NCBI RefSeq assembly: GCF_003574315.2
Contig: NZ_AP025739.1
Coordinates: 868,001-932,000, forward strand
DNA from: Capsulimonas corticalis
GTDB taxonomy: Bacteria; Armatimonadota; Armatimonadia; Armatimonadales; Capsulimonadaceae
Direction of reading: 5' to 3'
Length of the DNA stretch: 64,000 nt
Below the pieces are notes generated by a model. The model worked only from the letters and a program-made list of their open reading frames with translations, did no database searches and was not told the DNA's origin. The position numbers were made by a program, and so were the translations under genes. The stretch's first letter is position 1. Every line of letters begins with the position of its first letter. Below are positions 884 through 31,353 of this stretch, in pieces.

Positions 884-1975
884 ATGACAACTATGACCCA
901 GGAATGCGAAGCGACGACGGCGTCACCGATGCTGCTGAGCGACGACGAGCGCTGGGACGCCATTGCGCGGCGCGACGCGGCGGCCGATGGCGCATTCTAC
1001 TATTCGGTGCGTACGACGGGCGTGTATTGCCGTCCCTCCTGCGCGTCCCGTCCGGCGAACCGCGTCAACATCCAATTCCACGCGACATGCGCCGACGCGG
1101 AGCTGGCGGGTTTTCGCGCGTGCAAGCGATGCCGTCCCGATGGAGATTCTCTGGCGCGGCGGCGCGCCGCCGCCGTCGCGGAGGCGTGCCGCCTGATCGA
1201 AGCGTCGGACGAAGCGCCGGCGCTGGACGCGCTTGCCGAGTCCGCCGGCGTCAGCCGCTTTCACTTCCATCGGATCTTCAAAGCCGTCACCGGCGTGACG
1301 CCGAAGGCTTACGCCGACGCCCATCGCGCGCGGCGCGTCCGCGACCAGATCGCCCATGGAGCGAATATCTCCGAGGCGATCTATGAAGCCGGCTATCAGT
1401 CGAACAGCCGGTTCTACGAAGCCTCCAACGGGCTGCTTGGGATGACTCCCACCGCCTTCCGCGCCGGCGGCGCGGGCGCCGTGATCCGCTTCGCGATCGG
1501 CGAAAGCTCCCTGGGACCGATCCTCGTCGCGGCGACGGACAAGGGTGTCTGCGCGATCCTGATGGGCGACGATCCGGAGGCGCTCGCCCGCGATCTTCAG
1601 GACCGATTTCCGAAGGCGCAGCTGATCGGCGGCGATCAAGAGTTCGAAACCACAGTCGCGCAAGTGGTCCGCCTGATCGAAACGCCCGCGCGCGGTCTCG
1701 ACCTCCCTCTCGACATCCGGGGAACGGCCTTCCAGCAGCAAGTCTGGCAGGCGCTGCGCGAGATCGCCCCGGGATCGACGGCGAGCTACGCCGACATCGC
1801 GGCGCGCATCGGCAAGCCCAAAGCCGTACGCGCCGTCGCCCAGGCCTGCGCGTCGAACGCCATCGCCGTCGCGATCCCCTGCCACCGAATCGTTCGCACC
1901 GACGGCGAGCTGTCGGGATACCGCTGGGGCGTCGAACGCAAACGCGCCCTGCTGGACCGGGAAGCAGGCGCCTGA
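884..1975 (+). CDS. ada: Ada-type bifunctional methyl-phosphotriester/O6-methylguanine-DNA methyltransferase and regulator
   Basis: Suicide DNA-repair protein of 363 residues that removes methyl groups from DNA and, in E. coli Ada, then activates its own regulon. Domains in order: N-terminal Zn/methyl-acceptor domain with cysteines 49, 53, 80 and 83 (VYCRPSC and ACKRC; Cys49 matches the E. coli Ada Cys38 acceptor), AraC-type HTH at about 90-185 (FHFHRIFKAVTGVTPKAY), a linker, and the O6-alkylguanine transferase domain at about 195-363 with the catalytic PCHRIV motif (Cys333). Length and order match E. coli Ada (354 residues). The start at 884 has a strong GAGGAG site 7 nt upstream. An in-frame ATG at 839 and a GTG at 803 are alternatives, and 839 would fit a leaderless transcript. 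Confidence 0.93.
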   Translation: MTTMTQECEATTASPMLLSDDERWDAIARRDAAADGAFYYSVRTTGVYCRPSCASRPANRVNIQFHATCADAELAGFRACKRCRPDGDSLARRRAAAVAEACRLIEASDEAPALDALAESAGVSRFHFHRIFKAVTGVTPKAYADAHRARRVRDQIAHGANISEAIYEAGYQSNSRFYEASNGLLGMTPTAFRAGGAGAVIRFAIGESSLGPILVAATDKGVCAILMGDDPEALARDLQDRFPKAQLIGGDQEFETTVAQVVRLIETPARGLDLPLDIRGTAFQQQVWQALREIAPGSTASYADIAARIGKPKAVRAVAQACASNAIAVAIPCHRIVRTDGELSGYRWGVERKRALLDREAGA

Positions 1976-2001
1976 CGGATTTCCTTCGCCGCGCTGTCCC
2001 A

Positions 2002-2038
2002 GCCGAAGCTCATGACCGATCCGGTCATAAGCTTCGGC
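2002..2038. terminator. Bidirectional hairpin terminator
   Basis: A 17-bp stem with one mismatch and a 3-nt loop (arms 2002-2018 and 2022-2038). It lies between the convergent ada-type and sialidase-type genes. Neither side has a long T tract. Confidence 0.6.
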
Positions 2039-2061
2039 GCGTCATTGCGTCCGCTTTGCGG

Positions 2062-3792
2062 TTATTTCGTCACCTTCACATTGCGCCACGACGCCTGCGC
2101 GTCCCAGGACGATAGCCCAATCGCGCCAAATGGACTGGAGGCGTCGCGCGCTTTTACCTTCACCTCCGCTGCCCGCTCGCCGGCGCGCTGAACGCTCGCG
2201 TCCAGCGAGTCGCCCGAGGCGCGAACAGTGATGTGATACCAGACGCCGATCCGCACGCCCTCCGGCAGCGTCACGGACGCGAACGGTTTCCAGTCACGGT
2301 CTTCCTCGCCGAGCGTAAGCGCGCCGCCGACGGATGAGAGGCGCGCGGCGTAACCGTGAACATCGTCCGGCCCAGCCCCTGGGTCCGTCACGCGAAACAA
2401 AAGGCCGGCCTGTCCCGGCGACAGCAGCTTGATATCGGCGTCCAGCTTGTAATCCGCCCAACCCGTCGATCCCGCCACGGCCTTCGCGGCGCCCGCGCTC
2501 CCGTAGGCGGCGCCGCTCAGCGACCACTCTCCGCCATAGTCGATCCAGCCGGCGTCCGTTCCGGCGGCAAAATCGTCGCGGTACGGCAGCAGATCCGTCG
2601 GACCCGCCTGCGTGCTTTCTCGCCCGAGCGGAGCGCCGCCCGATGGGACCGTCAAACGGATGGACTTGCCGTCGCGCGACGGTAAGAGACAGGGACTGTA
2701 AACGGTGTTCGCGTTCCCTGACGGTGAATACAAAGGCCGGGACGGCGCCGGCATCCACGACCAGGCGCCGCGCCCGGAGCGGGAGTTGAGTAAGACGATC
2801 TGCCCGCTTTCCGGCGCGCCGCCGCCTTTGGTCAAACTCGCCGAATGCGCCGCGAGCATCAGCCGGCCTTCCCGGTTCGGTCCTGGCGTCCGAACCAGAT
2901 AGGGAGAGCCGATCAGGTACCGGCCATCCGGGGTCTCCGGTCGAGCGCCCAGATCGAAGGGCGATTCTCCCCAGCGATCCCCGTCCGGCGAGCGTTTCAC
3001 ATGGACCTCACAGCCGGGCGGTCCGCAGACTTCATAGCTCATCAAATACGATCCGTCACTCAGCCGCGCGACCGTCGCCATGCCCGGACGATCGGCCTGC
3101 CGGTCGCTGGCGACATCGGCGACCTCCGGTCCCCAGGTGTCGCCCCCATCGTCCGAGACGAGATGGGCCAGGATCTGGCTGTGCGTCGCAAACTGCCGCT
3201 CATCGGAAAAGTAGCAGACGAGCCGGCCTTGCCGATCGAGTCCAAGAAACGGCTCCCAGATGCCCCGTCCCGGGTTCACGCTTCCTCCCGTTTGAAAGGT
3301 CGAAACGTAGTCCCAATGAGCGCCATGATCGGCGCTGCGCCAGAGCTGGAAGTGAGTGTCCTTCGCCCCGCGCGAACCGACATTGCCGGCCAGCAGCAAC
3401 GTCCCCGCCGGATAGCGTCCCAGAGCTTGCGGCAGTTCAAACAGAAACGGCTGCCACATGATCGGCCATGGATGCCCCGGCCCGCGCTCGCCATCGGACG
3501 CCGTTCCCAGAGCGCTCCAGGTCTGGCCGTCGTCACGGCTCTGCTGGATCAAAAAACTGCCCGGCGACTCATCGTTATTCCAGCGCTCAAATGTCGACAG
3601 GAGCACGCCATTGCGAGAGCCGCTATGCTCCAGCCGGATGACTCGCGCATAGGCGATGTTTTCCTGAGCGTCGCGCAGCGCATAAAGCGTCCCTCCCGGC
3701 GCATTCGCGCGCGTCCGCGCGACATACCCTCCAAAGCACACGCAGCACGCCAGCGCCAGCAGCGCCGCGGACGTAAACGTTCGCACTTTCAT
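2062..3792 (-). CDS. Secreted sialidase-fold (BNR/Asp-box) protein with C-terminal concanavalin-like domain
   Basis: A 576-residue exported protein. A hydrophobic signal segment covers residues 8-22. A six-bladed sialidase-type propeller spans about 35-370 and shows Asp-box-like repeats (SRDDGQTWSA, SADHGAHWDY, SDDGGDTWGP). From about residue 400 there is a jelly-roll domain (DDFAAGTDAGWIDYGGEW onward) of the LamG/3-keto-disaccharide-hydrolase (DUF1080) type, which usually binds or cleaves saccharides. It is probably an extracytoplasmic glycan-acting enzyme, but Asp-box propellers have many activities and I cannot confirm the sialidase arginine triad. It is monocistronic, convergent with ada and divergent from the SDR gene. 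Confidence 0.8.
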   Translation of the reverse strand: MKVRTFTSAALLALACCVCFGGYVARTRANAPGGTLYALRDAQENIAYARVIRLEHSGSRNGVLLSTFERWNNDESPGSFLIQQSRDDGQTWSALGTASDGERGPGHPWPIMWQPFLFELPQALGRYPAGTLLLAGNVGSRGAKDTHFQLWRSADHGAHWDYVSTFQTGGSVNPGRGIWEPFLGLDRQGRLVCYFSDERQFATHSQILAHLVSDDGGDTWGPEVADVASDRQADRPGMATVARLSDGSYLMSYEVCGPPGCEVHVKRSPDGDRWGESPFDLGARPETPDGRYLIGSPYLVRTPGPNREGRLMLAAHSASLTKGGGAPESGQIVLLNSRSGRGAWSWMPAPSRPLYSPSGNANTVYSPCLLPSRDGKSIRLTVPSGGAPLGRESTQAGPTDLLPYRDDFAAGTDAGWIDYGGEWSLSGAAYGSAGAAKAVAGSTGWADYKLDADIKLLSPGQAGLLFRVTDPGAGPDDVHGYAARLSSVGGALTLGEEDRDWKPFASVTLPEGVRIGVWYHITVRASGDSLDASVQRAGERAAEVKVKARDASSPFGAIGLSSWDAQASWRNVKVTK

Positions 3793-24531: not shown

Positions 24532-27500
24532 TCAAACCCGCTTCAGATACCCCTGCGACGACACCACGTACCCCTCCTCCAAAAACGCCGCCGCCATCGC
24601 TGTCTCGCGCGGGTGTTCGCCGTTGACTTCCTCGATTAAGACGGCGCGCCTTCTCCCGTTGCCGACTTCGCCGGCGAGGGCGCGGGCGATTTCGAGGGCG
24701 ACGGCGCTGGGGTCGCGTTCGGGGACGTTGTCCAGAAAGGTGGTGAGCTGGCGTTCGCTTTTGGGGAGCCAGGCGGCGAGAGAGCCGTCGACGAGGATGA
24801 CGATGGAGCCGGCGATGCGCATGGGTTTGCGGCCTTCCTGGACAACGTCGGGCCAGGGGAGCGCGGCGCCGTAGGGATTGGCGGGATCGACGGTGCTCAG
24901 TAAGATCGTTTGGGGCTGGTTTTCGGGCTCGCGGAGGCCGCGCAGGCGGTCCACGGCGCCGGGGAGGGCGAACTGGGTCGCGCCGAGGCCGGCGACGAAG
25001 TAGCCTCGGCGCACCGCGCCGGCGTCCTCCATGGCTTTCAGGACACCGTAGACACTGCTGAAGCCGCCGGCGATGCCTTCGGCCTGGACGGCTTCGCGAG
25101 TGACGAGGCCATAGCGATCCAGGAGTAAGTTCGTGCGGGCGGCGAGGCGCTCGGTGGGCGTCGGCTCGTCGTAGATCAGGCTGCTGACAAGGGACCAGCG
25201 GCCGGAAGCCTCGGCCTGGGTCGCGTGGCCGGACAGGGCGGAGGCGCCGAGGCGGCTGCCGGGGCGCATCGCGCGGCCCGTGCCGGCGTAGCCGCGTCCA
25301 GGCCGTTGAGGGCGTTCTGGACGCTGGGGGCGGCCCGCGCGATGCGGGTGGCAGTAGGCGCGCAGCGCGTGAAGAGAGTCGTTGGTGACTTCGCCGGCCC
25401 AGACGAGGTCCCAGAGCGCGGCGAGGACATCCGGCGGGAATGAGCCGACGGCTTGGAGAAGCTGCGGGAAGAACGAGGCGCCGCGCGCCGCCAGATGCGC
25501 GCGGATCTTGTCGTGCATCTCGGACGATGGCCGGTCATCGGGCGCAGTCTGGCCCCCCAGTAAGTACGGCGCGTCATCGGCAAGATAAAAGCTGATCCGG
25601 CCGTCGTGCTGCCCGAGGGACTCGCAGCCGATCCAGAAGATCGCGCCCGACGCCATCAGTTCGTCGAGCGCGCGGGAGTCGTAGTCGGCGACGCGCGCGG
25701 GCAGGATATGCGTCTCCAGCACGGAGGCGGGAATGCTTGAACCCTGGAGCTGGGTGATCGCCTGAGCAGTCGCGTTCGGGCCGCGACGCGGGGTTTCGAC
25801 GTTCTGCCAGTGGACATAGAGACGGCCGAGGGCGCTTTGATCGACCGGCTCGACTTCGTGGCGAAGGCGCGCGAGCGACTTCTGGCGCAGGGCGCGCAGC
25901 ACGCCCGGATCGCACCACTCCTCGCCCGTCCCGCCGGGCCGGAACTCGCCTTCGACAATCTTCCCAGACGACGACATGCGGTTTAAGATGGCGGCGACGG
26001 GCGCGACGCCGATGGAATAGCGCCGGGCGATATCGGCGGTCTGGAAAGGTCCGTGCGTGCGGCTGTAACGTGAGACCAAATCGCCAAGCGGATCGCGCGT
26101 GTACTCCAAAAAGGCTTCGGGCAGGCCTGGCGGCGGCGGAATGCCCAGAGCGTCCCGGTACTTACCGGCGTCCTCGGCGGCGATCCAGCGCGTTTCTCCG
26201 GCGATGGGGAGAGGGATCACACGTCGATCGCGCTCCAATTGCGCGAGCCATGGATCGACCAGTGTTTTGTCGGTGACGCGCGCTTCGATCTCCGCGCGGG
26301 ACAGATCGCCCAGGCGGATGAACAGATCATTCAGGCCGTCGGCGTGACGCGCGGCGCGCTCGGGCGTCAGATGCGCCAGGTAAAGTTCGAGCTCCGTCAG
26401 CGAGTCGGCGTCCAGCAGTTCGCGCAGTTCGACTTCTCCGAGCAGCTCGCGCAATTGCGACGGATCGACGCTCAGCGCCTGCGCGCGCCGCTCGGCCAGC
26501 GGCGCATCGCCCTCATAGATGAAGTTTGCGACGTAGTTAAACATCAGCGCGGAGGCAAACGGCGACGGCGTGCGCGTCGTCACGGTCACGACGCGCACCG
26601 CGCGCGTGCGGATCTCGGTCAGCAGCTCTTGCAGCGCGGGCATATCGAAGACATCGCGCAGGCATTCGCGGTAGGTCTCCAGAATGATCGGAAAACCGCC
26701 GTACTTGATCGTCGCCTGCAAAAGCTCGGCGGAGCGTTTGCGCTGCTGCCAGAGCGGCGCGCGCTGCCCGGGAAACTTGCGCGGCAGCAGCAAGGCGCGC
26801 GCGGCGTTCTCACGGAACCGAGAAGCGAACAGCGCGACGGCGGGCGCGCCCTGCCCCGCTTGACGCGCGGCGCCGCCCGCGCCGAGCTGCCGCACCACCA
26901 GGTCTTCGATCTCTTCCGGATCGGGAAGCACGGTTTCGGCGCTGGGCGGCTCGTCGGCTTCGGGGAAGCGCACGACAATGCCGTCGTCGGTCCAGAGCAC
27001 GTCGATCTCGTAGTCGGTCATCTCGCGGACAATCGCGCCGATCGCCATCGCCCACGGCGCATGGACTTTCGAGCCGAAGGGGCTGAGGATGCAGACTCGC
27101 CAGTCACCCATATCGTCTTTGTAAGACTCGATCACGATGGTCTTGTCGTCCGGGACCGCGCCCGCCGCTTCCTCCTGGTCGCGCAGATACTGGATCAGAT
27201 TCTTCGCCGCCAGCGCATCCAGCATATGCTTCTCGATCAGGAGCTGGGTGGCGTCCTCATCGGACAATCCGCGCAGCGTTCGGGTCAAGGCGCCGATGGC
27301 GCGGCCGAACTCCAGGGGCCGCCCCGCCGATTCGCCGTGCCAGAAGGGCATTTTGCCGGGGACTCCGGGCGCGGGCGAGACGATCACCCGGTCATGGGTG
27401 ATCTCTTCAATCCGCCAGGAGCTCGCGCCGAGCAGAAAGACATCGCCGGTCTTGCTCTCGAAGACCATCTCTTCGTCCAATTCGCCGACACGCCCTTTGC

Positions 27501-29322
27501 CCTTCTCGGCGCCCAGTAAAAAGACGCCATACAGACCACGGTCTGGGATGGTCCCGCCATTAGTGATGGCGATTCTCTTGGCCCCTTCGCGGCTGTGCAC
27601 GGTGTTGTTGATCCGGTCCCAGGTGATGCGCGGGCGCAGTTCGGCGAAATCGTCCGAGGGGTAACGGCCGCTGAGCATGTCCAGCACTTCGATAAACATC
27701 GTGCGCGGCAGCTCGGCGAAGGGCGCGCTCCGGCGAATGACGCGTTCCAAATCGTCCACCCGCCAATCGTCCATCGCCACCATCGCCACGATCTGCTGCG
27801 CCAGCACATCCAGCGGGTTGCGCGGATAGCGCATCTGCTCGACCGCGCCCTGAATCATCCGATCCGTCAGCGCCGCGCACGCGAGCAGGTCGCCGCGATA
27901 CTTGGGCAGAATGACGCCTTTGCTAAGGCCCCCGACATGGTGCCCCGCGCGCCCAATTCTTTGCAAAGCGCTCGAAACGCTCGGCGGCGCCTCGACCTGG
28001 ATCACCAGATCGATCGCGCCCATATCGATCCCCAATTCCAAAGACGATGTCGCCACCATCGCGGGCAGCCGCCCGGACTTCAGCTCATCCTCAATCATCA
28101 TTCTTTGCTCACGCGCGATCGATCCATGGTGCGCGTGGACGATCTCCTCCCCCGCCAGCTCATTGAGCGCCGCCGCCAGCCGCTCGGCCAATCTTCGGCT
28201 ATTCACAAAGATCAGCGTGGAGCGATGCTGTTTGATCAAATCTAAGATCAAGGGATGGATCGCCGGCCAGATACTTGTCCGGGTGTCGCCCTGCGACGCC
28301 GGGCCGCTCGGGATTTCTTGTATTTCTCCCAGCTTCGCCATATCTTCCACGGGGACTTCGACGCGCAGGTCGAGCATGCGGCCCGCGCCGGCGTCGATGA
28401 TTTGGATGGGGCGAAGAAGATGCCCCCCGGCCCCCACAGGGGGAGCAGAACCCAGCGCATCCACCACAGCCTCTAAGTCAGAGACATCCTCATCCCTACT
28501 GTTTGCCTCTTTCTCCTTACCATCCAAGCCTGCAAGGGCTGCGAACTCATGCTCTGCTCCCCCTGTGGGGGCCGGGGGGCATCCGGGGTCTTCCTCTACT
28601 ATTTGTGAGAGGGGATTTTGAAACCCGCCCAAAAACCGAGCCACCTCGTCCAGCGGCCGTTGCGTCGCCGACAGGCCAATGCGTTGGAACCCATGCGGCG
28701 CCGTCAGTTCCTCCAAGCGCTCCAAAGACAGGCTCAAATGCACGCCGCGCTTGGTGGAGACCATCGCGTGGATCTCGTCGATGATCACCCAGTGGATCGA
28801 CCGCAGAGTCTCGCGGGCGTTGCTGGTGAGCATCAGAAAGAGCGACTCGGGGGTCGTGATTAAGATGTCGGCGGGGGTGCGGTTGAACTGGGCGCGCTCT
28901 TTGCTGGGCGTATCGCCGGTGCGGATCGCGACCGTGGGCGGATGCGCGGGGACTTCCATCCGCTCGGCGTAGCGTGAGACGCCGACCAAGGGCGCGCGCA
29001 GGTTGCGCTCGACATCGACGGCCAGGGCCTTGAGCGGGGAGATGTAAAGCACTCGGCAGCGCTGGGGCGGCGGGGGGACGGGGTCGAACATGATCCGATC
29101 GATGGCCGAGAGAAACGCCGTGAGGGTTTTGCCGGAGCCCGTGGGGGCGAGGATCAGGGTCGATTGGCCGCTTTGGATCGCGGGCCAGCCGAGCTGCTGC
29201 ACGCGTGTCGGCTCCGGAAAGGAGCTGGTGAACCAGGAGCGAACGGGATCGTGGAAACCGTTCAGGGCGTCGAGCGGATTGGGGGCGCCGCCTTCGCGGA
29301 CGGACCGTTTGACTCTGGGCAT
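24532..29322 (-). CDS. lhr: Large helicase-related protein Lhr, with in-frame insertion
   Basis: A 1596-residue SF2 3'-5' DNA helicase implicated in DNA repair. RecA1 has Walker A APTGSGKT (residues 59-66), DEIH (182-185) and LSATQRP. RecA2 carries VATSSLELGIDMG and LQRIGRAGHH. A winged-helix and Lhr-specific beta-barrel region follows, and a long C-terminal domain (about 900-1596) makes this the full-length Lhr architecture (E. coli Lhr is 1538). Between RecA1 and RecA2, residues about 247-301 are a low-complexity Pro/Gly/Ala- and acid-rich insert encoded by a palindromic element. The normal sequence resumes at IQIIDAGAGRMLDLRVEVP. The frame is intact, so the gene is probably functional. GAGAT precedes the ATG. 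Confidence 0.95.
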   Translation of the reverse strand: MPRVKRSVREGGAPNPLDALNGFHDPVRSWFTSSFPEPTRVQQLGWPAIQSGQSTLILAPTGSGKTLTAFLSAIDRIMFDPVPPPPQRCRVLYISPLKALAVDVERNLRAPLVGVSRYAERMEVPAHPPTVAIRTGDTPSKERAQFNRTPADILITTPESLFLMLTSNARETLRSIHWVIIDEIHAMVSTKRGVHLSLSLERLEELTAPHGFQRIGLSATQRPLDEVARFLGGFQNPLSQIVEEDPGCPPAPTGGAEHEFAALAGLDGKEKEANSRDEDVSDLEAVVDALGSAPPVGAGGHLLRPIQIIDAGAGRMLDLRVEVPVEDMAKLGEIQEIPSGPASQGDTRTSIWPAIHPLILDLIKQHRSTLIFVNSRRLAERLAAALNELAGEEIVHAHHGSIAREQRMMIEDELKSGRLPAMVATSSLELGIDMGAIDLVIQVEAPPSVSSALQRIGRAGHHVGGLSKGVILPKYRGDLLACAALTDRMIQGAVEQMRYPRNPLDVLAQQIVAMVAMDDWRVDDLERVIRRSAPFAELPRTMFIEVLDMLSGRYPSDDFAELRPRITWDRINNTVHSREGAKRIAITNGGTIPDRGLYGVFLLGAEKGKGRVGELDEEMVFESKTGDVFLLGASSWRIEEITHDRVIVSPAPGVPGKMPFWHGESAGRPLEFGRAIGALTRTLRGLSDEDATQLLIEKHMLDALAAKNLIQYLRDQEEAAGAVPDDKTIVIESYKDDMGDWRVCILSPFGSKVHAPWAMAIGAIVREMTDYEIDVLWTDDGIVVRFPEADEPPSAETVLPDPEEIEDLVVRQLGAGGAARQAGQGAPAVALFASRFRENAARALLLPRKFPGQRAPLWQQRKRSAELLQATIKYGGFPIILETYRECLRDVFDMPALQELLTEIRTRAVRVVTVTTRTPSPFASALMFNYVANFIYEGDAPLAERRAQALSVDPSQLRELLGEVELRELLDADSLTELELYLAHLTPERAARHADGLNDLFIRLGDLSRAEIEARVTDKTLVDPWLAQLERDRRVIPLPIAGETRWIAAEDAGKYRDALGIPPPPGLPEAFLEYTRDPLGDLVSRYSRTHGPFQTADIARRYSIGVAPVAAILNRMSSSGKIVEGEFRPGGTGEEWCDPGVLRALRQKSLARLRHEVEPVDQSALGRLYVHWQNVETPRRGPNATAQAITQLQGSSIPASVLETHILPARVADYDSRALDELMASGAIFWIGCESLGQHDGRISFYLADDAPYLLGGQTAPDDRPSSEMHDKIRAHLAARGASFFPQLLQAVGSFPPDVLAALWDLVWAGEVTNDSLHALRAYCHPHRAGRPQRPERPQRPGRGYAGTGRAMRPGSRLGASALSGHATQAEASGRWSLVSSLIYDEPTPTERLAARTNLLLDRYGLVTREAVQAEGIAGGFSSVYGVLKAMEDAGAVRRGYFVAGLGATQFALPGAVDRLRGLREPENQPQTILLSTVDPANPYGAALPWPDVVQEGRKPMRIAGSIVILVDGSLAAWLPKSERQLTTFLDNVPERDPSAVALEIARALAGEVGNGRRRAVLIEEVNGEHPRETAMAAAFLEEGYVVSSQGYLKRV
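28419..28583. repeat. 165-bp in-frame palindromic element (REPIN/RPE-like) inside lhr
   Basis: Two perfect 31-bp inverted arms, 28419-28449 and 28553-28583, enclose a 103-bp centre. Each arm itself holds a hairpin with core CCCCCTGTGGGGG (or its complement). The whole unit is 165 bp, exactly 55 codons, and keeps the lhr frame. It encodes GCPPAPTGGAE at one end and SAPPVGAGGH at the other. Confidence 0.85.
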
Positions 29323-31313: not shown

Positions 31314-31353
31314 CGGGTGGTATGCCGGCGGCTCTGCGCCGGCATGCCACCCG
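31314..31353. terminator. Bidirectional terminator between glnK and the GerMN gene
   Basis: A 17-bp stem with one G-T pair (31314-31330 with 31337-31353) and a 6-nt loop, between convergent genes. Confidence 0.75.

What the first reader, a model, noticed from the sequence alone, without database searches (positions are those of the whole stretch)
28419..28583. A 165-bp palindromic element inserted in frame into lhr
Two perfect 31-bp inverted arms, each with its own CCCCCTGTGGGGG hairpin, enclose 103 bp. The unit is exactly 55 codons long and sits in the linker between the two RecA domains of Lhr, where extra residues are tolerated. Two inverted hairpin units resemble REPINs, and in-frame coding insertions resemble the Rickettsia palindromic elements (RPEs). 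I know of neither class described for this type of organism. The arms encode Pro/Gly/Ala-rich ends and the centre an acid-rich stretch, so a mobile DNA repeat appears to be creating new protein sequence.
Basis: partly seen in the sequence, partly recalled or inferred. Interest (0 to 1): 0.82.

Follow-up and report, generated by a model that had tools for sequence, protein, structure and literature searches.

The report
Mobile palindrome inside a helicase gene
A 165-base palindrome that adds 55 amino acids to a DNA-repair helicase is one copy of a jumping DNA family whose gene-carrying member encodes a small cutting enzyme (DUF559), and palindromes built around this enzyme turn up in several groups of bacteria.

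Summary
In detail: perfect 31-nt inverted arms, 103 nt apart, 55 codons in the linker between the two helicase domains of lhr. The insert belongs to a dispersed family (A): arms at 22 loci of this genome, none with the pattern read backwards. The 8 informative Lhr homologues outside the genus lack it; the sister species has a different palindrome in the same linker. Some other copies are absent from the sister.

The main result lies outside the window. One family-A copy (504 bp) encloses a DUF559 (Vsr-like) nuclease gene. The genome's other two full-length DUF559 genes lie inside two other palindrome families. Of 164 distinct DUF559 genes, 107 of 156 measurable ones are bracketed by inverted repeats, against 7 of 226 neighbouring ORFs, 0 of 29 Uma2 nuclease genes and 18 of 30 Y1 transposase genes, a known class of palindrome mover.

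I read the lhr insert as a gene-less copy of a DUF559-driven palindromic element. It resembles REPIN/RAYT and TIRtron systems, with an unrelated enzyme. Mobilisation by DUF559 is inferred, not shown.

The parts
28419..28583 (.). Palindromic element, family A, gene-less copy, in frame in lhr (55 codons)
28419..28449 (.). Inverted arm next to the 3' side of the insert in lhr; inner hairpin 28431-28443
   Evidence: recurs in the genome
28553..28583 (.). Second inverted arm, 5' side of the insert in lhr; inner hairpin 28559-28571
28542..28583 (.). 42 nt, 93% identical to the end of family-A copy 998662-998780: homology goes 11 nt beyond the arm
28450..28552 (.). Interior; codes for an acid-rich stretch; apart from the end noted above no match elsewhere in the genome
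24532..29322 (-). lhr, Large helicase-related protein, 1596 aa, host gene of the insert
28593..28612 (.). Short palindrome CCTCT...AGAGG beside the insert, also in the lhr linker; may be the remnant of another repeat (read from the sequence)

Best explanation
The lhr insert is a non-autonomous copy of a palindromic mobile element (family A). The family's coding member (genome 797498-798001, 504 bp) carries one gene between the arms, a DUF559 nuclease of the Vsr-like PD-(D/E)XK type. Short copies keep both ends, about 60 nt each, without the gene, like a MITE and its parent. Most likely the nuclease recognises the folded hairpin ends of its own family, cuts there and at other palindromes or intergenic hairpins, and repair or rejoining copies the element into the break; it acts in trans on gene-less copies. 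A copy that lands in a tolerant linker, is a multiple of three long and has no stop in that frame can survive as coding sequence, as in lhr. Shown here: the dispersed family, its absence from Lhr homologues, sites filled in one sister species and empty in the other, a gene-bearing copy with the same ends, and a strong DUF559-palindrome association across several phyla. Inferred: that DUF559 is the mobilising enzyme, and the cut-and-copy chemistry.
For: Arms at 22 loci, 0 in the reversed control. The gene-bearing and gene-less copies share ends beyond the arms in families A, B and C. Three of three full-length DUF559 genes of the genome are bracketed. DUF559 107 of 156 bracketed; 9 of 1087 positions; 7 of 226 ORFs; Uma2 0 of 29, Y1 18 of 30. 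Gene-less copies of DUF559 arms are listed in 6 of 11 genomes searched (G000, G002, G004, G007, G291, G293). Four of 9 sites read are empty in the sister, one of them that of the gene-bearing family-C element. Anabaena elements L177 and L178 share 650 bp at 95.5% and otherwise only palindromes. Nuclease-type residues are conserved. Arm similarity rises with protein identity.
Against: No movement, binding or cutting was observed. 49 of 156 DUF559 genes show no bracket at this threshold, and a Caulobacter DUF559 protein acts as a Vsr-like enzyme (PMC12907096, passages). In 4 of 11 genomes no gene-less copy of the arm was listed outside the element or its contig, and one was unresolved (the list was cut). 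Arms are not shared between distantly related DUF559 proteins. The genome also has palindrome-bracketed Y1 transposases that could act in trans. The lhr interior is not explained by the family.
Confidence: 0.62

Rival explanations
1. DUF559 is a homing endonuclease gene that parasitises existing palindromic repeats: it cuts gene-less palindromes at their centre and is copied in by repair through the arms. The palindromes themselves spread by another route.
For: DUF559 is described as an EDxHD homing endonuclease in an intein (PMC9403480, one passage). The gene sits at palindrome centres, and family-B copies lie at centres of other palindromes.
Against: The gene-bearing element C has an empty site in the sister with no palindrome left behind. 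The Anabaena unit of arms plus gene lies in unrelated surroundings. Gene-less copies share ends beyond the arms with gene-bearing ones.
Confidence: 0.2
2. Palindromes, lhr insert included, are moved in trans by IS200-like Y1 transposases (RAYT/TIRYT type); DUF559 is a passenger.
For: The genome has four Y1 genes, two bracketed by long inverted repeats; 18 of 30 Y1 genes in relatives are bracketed. RAYTs are the accepted movers of REPINs (PMC3116915, abstract).
Against: The Y1-bracketing repeats are of other families than A, B and C; no Y1 gene was found inside A, B or C copies read. DUF559 is bracketed as often as Y1.
Confidence: 0.1
3. DUF559 genes are Vsr-type repair genes and the inverted repeats around them are transcription terminators; the palindromes are unrelated to the gene.
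For: Caulobacter VsrA carries DUF559 and is tied to cytosine methylation (PMC12907096, passages). Many copies lie just behind genes.
Against: Near-identical arms of 40-150 nt on both sides are not expected of independent terminators; Uma2 0 of 29 and 7 of 226 ORFs. Gene-less copies share the ends.
Confidence: 0.05
4. The lhr segment is an ordinary variable linker with a chance palindrome.
For: The linker is also long in the sister species; a 16-nt match between the two interiors (6 of 500 shuffles as good) could mean that part of it predates the split.
Against: The arm recurs at 21 other loci, 0 in the reversed control; the 8 informative homologues outside the genus lack the 55 residues.
Confidence: 0.02

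Closest known systems
REPINs and RAYT (REP doublets with a REP-associated tyrosine transposase); PMC3116915, abstract seen
   Same: Two inverted hairpin units with a spacer, dispersed, gene-less, with a single-gene partner
   Different: Here the partner inside the family is a DUF559 nuclease, not a Y1 transposase; arms are longer and lack a constant GTAG foot
TIRtrons / TIRYT (Y1 genes between long inverted repeats, some repeated in the genome); PMC3733652, abstract, sections 14-16 and passages read
   Same: One small gene between long inverted repeats; repeats recur as dimers; also seen here for Y1 genes L289, L290
   Different: Enzyme of another fold (DUF559)
Rickettsia palindromic elements and other intragenic REPs; PMC10969869 passages, PMC3733652 section 15
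   Same: In-frame palindromes of about 150 bp in genes; intragenic REPs often in DNA synthesis and repair genes, as lhr is
   Different: Family A is mostly intergenic in the copies read; sequences unrelated as far as recalled
MITEs (gene-less derivatives of insertion sequences); PMC10969869 passages
   Same: Short gene-less copies with the ends of a gene-bearing parent
   Different: No target-site duplication seen; parent gene is DUF559
DUF559 proteins: Caulobacter VsrA (PMC12907096 passages); EDxHD homing endonuclease in an intein (PMC9403480 one passage); solved structure 3hrl
   Same: Same protein domain; DNA cutting expected
   Different: The retrieved passages describe no palindromic element with the gene or gene-less copies

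Membership tests
REPIN / RAYT | Two inverted hairpin units with a spacer, dispersed in the genome | tested here: met
REPIN / RAYT | Family linked to a RAYT (Y1) gene | tested here: not met
   Y1 genes lie in other repeat families; RAYT model below cut-off or no match
REPIN / RAYT | GTAG/GGAG foot beside the stem | tested here: inconclusive
   GTAG lies just outside 2 of 22 ends printed (counted by eye)
TIRtron | Long inverted repeats around one gene, repeats recurring elsewhere | tested here: met
TIRtron | The enclosed gene is a Y1 transposase | tested here: not met
   DUF559 in families A, B, C
Rickettsia palindromic element | Palindrome inserted in frame in a protein gene | tested here: met
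   lhr; one arm in a portal-like ORF
Rickettsia palindromic element | Large share of copies inside genes | tested here: not met
   Most copies read lie between genes; ORFs were judged by eye
MITE | Gene-less copies with the ends of a gene-bearing parent | tested here: met
MITE | Target-site duplication | tested here: not met
   None seen by eye at 11 copies
DUF559 mobilised element (proposed) | DUF559 gene between inverted repeats more often than control genes | tested here: met
DUF559 mobilised element (proposed) | DUF559 cuts or nicks the ends of its own family | not testable with these tools
   Needs biochemistry
Homing endonuclease gene | Insertion into one conserved target allele by repair | tested here: inconclusive
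   Whole elements occupy unrelated sites; cutting not tested

The most novel reading that the evidence does not exclude
DUF559 nucleases are a second, unrelated class of palindrome-mobilising enzyme, parallel to RAYT/TIRYT. They drive a cross-phylum superfamily of very small mobile elements (roughly 450-860 bp with the gene, about 115-310 bp without) that accounts for many palindromic repeats in Armatimonadota, Cyanobacteria, Chloroflexota and Planctomycetota, and that now and then writes new protein segments such as the Lhr linker.
Probability: 0.55. Interest if true: 0.9.

Novelty: new variant of a known kind. Interest (0 to 1): 0.8.

Why it matters
Some bacterial palindromic repeats have no known mover; Di Nocera et al. 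2013 (PMC3733652) say so for the CGTC class. The data here suggest, for a widespread domain still listed as of unknown function, a specific and testable role as the resident enzyme of palindromic mobile elements, with a negative and a positive family control. They also show such an element adding 55 residues to a conserved helicase, with a different palindrome in the same linker of the sister species: a natural experiment in how mobile DNA makes protein sequence.

Tried and rejected
RAYT as the mover of family A: looked for, not supported. Target-site duplication: none seen by eye at 11 copies. Family A in the centre of other palindromes: not significant (n = 7, p = 0.44), unlike family B (n = 16, p = 0.0005; one of 16 gene-less loci, L308, was dropped because its end was not recognised, and the gene copy was added). 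Origin of the lhr interior: no match in the genome beyond the ends; weak DNA match to the sister linker (6 of 500 shuffles as good), peptide comparison not significant (108 of 500).

The first bracket test (73 of 127; 8 of 828 positions) was replaced by a larger, deduplicated one (94 of 153; 10 of 1075 positions; 6 of 199 ORFs). That one scored the family-A gene copy itself as unbracketed (score 21), because its reading frame runs through an arm, so I redefined the core after seeing this (107 of 156; 9 of 1087; 7 of 226). One search stopped with an error after printing its tables. In one search the core of Uma2 and Y1 is the whole matched domain, slightly different.

Papers: DUF559 with inverted repeat, palindrom, transpos or mobile, and COG2852 listed none whose title, abstract start or passages read describe the association; not every listed paper was opened, and subscription journals and bioRxiv are mostly not held. 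Searches gave nothing nearer. A tblastn in plasmids gave 41 records, not followed. Structure prediction was not run, as a solved relative exists.

Full report
OBSERVATION. The insert is as described: 31-nt perfect arms at 28419-28449 and 28553-28583 with 103 nt between, the only perfect pair of four listed for the window, folding z = -8.95. It lies in lhr (24532-29322, minus strand), codons 247-301, between the DEAD (39-222) and Helicase_C (360-461) domains.

IT IS A DISPERSED REPEAT. The window is G000:C1:868001-932000 of a 7.65-Mb single-contig genome. Two arm patterns with up to 3 mismatches hit 19 and 27 places, and 0 when read backwards. Together they make 22 loci by my count; five of these rest on 3-mismatch hits only (610236, 2724528, 3320832, 5565812, 6444449), and a sixth, 4614918, also has a 3-mismatch hit but a two-ended structure. 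Eleven copies were printed with both ends, boundaries set by hand: five gene-less copies of 116-119 bp with near-identical arms, four more diverged ones of 114-164 bp, lhr at 165 bp, and one of 504 bp. The end reads GATGCCCCCCGRCCCCCACAGGGGGTGCARACCATA and goes on less strictly for about 25 nt. The pattern (up to 2 mismatches) occurs in 2 of 61 genomes, the own one and the same-genus G001. The organism is an Armatimonadota bacterium by inference: contig G014:C56 of the same order has the same length as the named Armatimonadaceae record L207. No call named the genus.

THE LHR SITE. Of 11 Lhr homologues aligned, 10 lie outside the genus; 8 of these cover the linker and all 8 lack the 55 residues. 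Two of the 8 (L079, L080) have other, moderately long linkers. L078 does not cover the region and L084 was read in a wrong frame. The sister G001 (95% identical over residues 293-1596) has in the same linker a palindrome of another kind (CCCCCTCTCCCAGAATTGGGAGAGGGGG, read in frame); its contig starts inside the linker, so the upstream part is missing. Whether the acid-rich interior predates the split is undecided. Six of six family-A copies translated are stop-free in at least 3 of 6 frames, and two of the six (117 and 165 bp) have a length divisible by three, so in-frame survival is not hard. A second in-gene case is a single arm hairpin beside a CTCTCCC repeat in a 616-aa ORF with a P22-like portal domain, behind that domain.

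MOBILITY. Flanks of 18 own-genome copies were searched in G001 (23 matches) and 9 copies were examined. Four sites lack the element in G001: the gene-bearing family-C copy, A_3205658, A_998662 (diverged surroundings) and B_L296. Two hold a different palindrome (A_3208460, B_L295). One is shared (C_L311). Two are inconclusive because only one flank was found (A_1385717 and the gene-bearing A copy). A further shared copy, 5812463, is visible. So some copies predate the split and others were gained or lost since.

THE DUF559 LINK. The 504-bp copy encloses a DUF559 gene (797564-797872), whose reading frame runs through one arm and stops just beyond it. The genome has two further full-length DUF559 genes (1487820, 2525819) and two weak matches (E 2.4e-4). 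Bracketing arms: 26 nt at 100% for the first, 52 nt at 100% and 75 nt at 95% for the others. The other two arm families recur without the gene: family B in 41 further rows listed for this genome, 22 of them forming 11 inverted pairs about 100 nt apart; family C at 4 further places. 16 B loci and 4 C loci were read. Gene-bearing copies match gene-less ones for some way beyond the arms. In the 11 genomes, gene-less copies of a DUF559 arm are listed for G000, G002, G004, G007, G291 and G293; for G005, G010, G060 and G292 none outside the element or its contig is listed; G294 is unresolved. The list was cut, so these are lower bounds.

SURVEY. 164 distinct DUF559 genes came from the phylum search (165 of 291 genomes have the family; regions) and from 80 named loci, mostly Cyanobacteria and Chloroflexota with a few Planctomycetota, Bacteroidota and others. 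An inverted-repeat pair with local score 32 or more, one arm within 500 bp on each side, was found for 107 of 156 measurable genes (50 of 78 in the named set, 57 of 78 in the own-phylum set; 8 genes too near a contig end), against 9 of 1087 positions and 7 of 226 ORFs of 90-260 aa in the same loci. With the earlier core it was 94 of 153, 10 of 1075 and 6 of 199. Uma2, another dispersed nuclease family, gave 0 of 29 (1 of 30 not measurable). Y1 transposases gave 18 of 30 (3 of 33 not measurable). Fisher p of the own-phylum DUF559 set against Uma2 is 5.5e-13, against Y1 0.24. That Uma2 is of the PD-(D/E)XK type is recalled. Residues D59, E70, D72, H76, D83 and R86 (numbering) are at least 98% conserved in bracketed and unbracketed genes alike. 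Among 89 elements, arm similarity rises with protein identity (Mantel p = 0.002): 98% of 48 pairs above 80% identity share arms, 0.9% of 2022 pairs at 40-50%; relatedness of the hosts was not removed.

In five Anabaena/Dolichospermum-type loci (L170, L177, L178, L185, L187) the elements are 87.8-96.8% identical. In most pairs homology stops at the arms or within about 50 nt of them; L177 and L178 share 650 bp at 95.5% and otherwise only palindrome copies. Against this, L178 and L185 stay alike for some 630 nt downstream, L187 lacks the outer part of the upstream arm, and some pairs share regions a kilobase or more away, so the loci are not all independent.

TARGETS. Family-B copies tend to lie at the centre of other palindromes (n = 16, permutation p = 0.0005); family A does not significantly (n = 7, p = 0.44). 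Nested palindromes are also visible in loci printed. This fits an enzyme that attacks folded hairpins; it does not prove it.

KNOWN KINDS. Di Nocera et al. 2013 (PMC3733652: abstract, passages, sections 14-16) describe REP dimers, REPs inside genes, many in DNA synthesis and repair genes, and TIRtrons, where Y1 genes lie between long inverted repeats; they report that CGTC REPs lack a transposase. The lhr insert fits the intragenic, repair-gene pattern. REPINs (PMC3116915, abstract), REP-type Y1 classes (PMC6006769, passages) and RPEs (PMC10969869, passages) are the other close kinds. DUF559 is known as VsrA in Caulobacter (PMC12907096, passages), as an EDxHD homing endonuclease in an intein (PMC9403480, one passage), and with a transposase in repeated recombination hotspots of Legionella (PMC12308824, passages). 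The searches showed no paper linking DUF559 to palindromic repeats.

VERDICT. Real, with evidence of mobility, in frame. Best read as a gene-less member of a DUF559-associated class of palindromic elements. The elements and the association are well supported; that DUF559 moves them is an inference (confidence 0.62).

Noticed in passing
L289 (genome 2822448-2822777) and L290 (genome 2171961-2172299): IS200-like Y1 genes bracketed by inverted repeats of about 90 and 77 nt of two other palindrome families, TIRtron-like.
   Followed up: partly
L019, ORF 1168-3019 minus strand (genome 6444449): A family-A arm hairpin and a CTCTCCC repeat read in frame behind the portal domain of a P22-portal-like protein.
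   Followed up: partly
L199 3267-3621 and 3958-4312; L171 2244-2616 and 3979-4339: Two DUF559 genes close together, each between inverted repeats; in L199 they share the middle repeat.
   Followed up: no
L045/L320 and L295/L335: The same intergenic site holds different palindrome families in the two sister species, as the lhr linker does.
   Followed up: partly
window 31314-31353: Intergenic GC-rich near-palindrome CGGGTGGTATGCCGGC...GCCGGCATGCCACCCG behind a small ORF that follows an ammonium-transporter-like gene (gene name recalled); unrelated to family A by eye.
   Followed up: no
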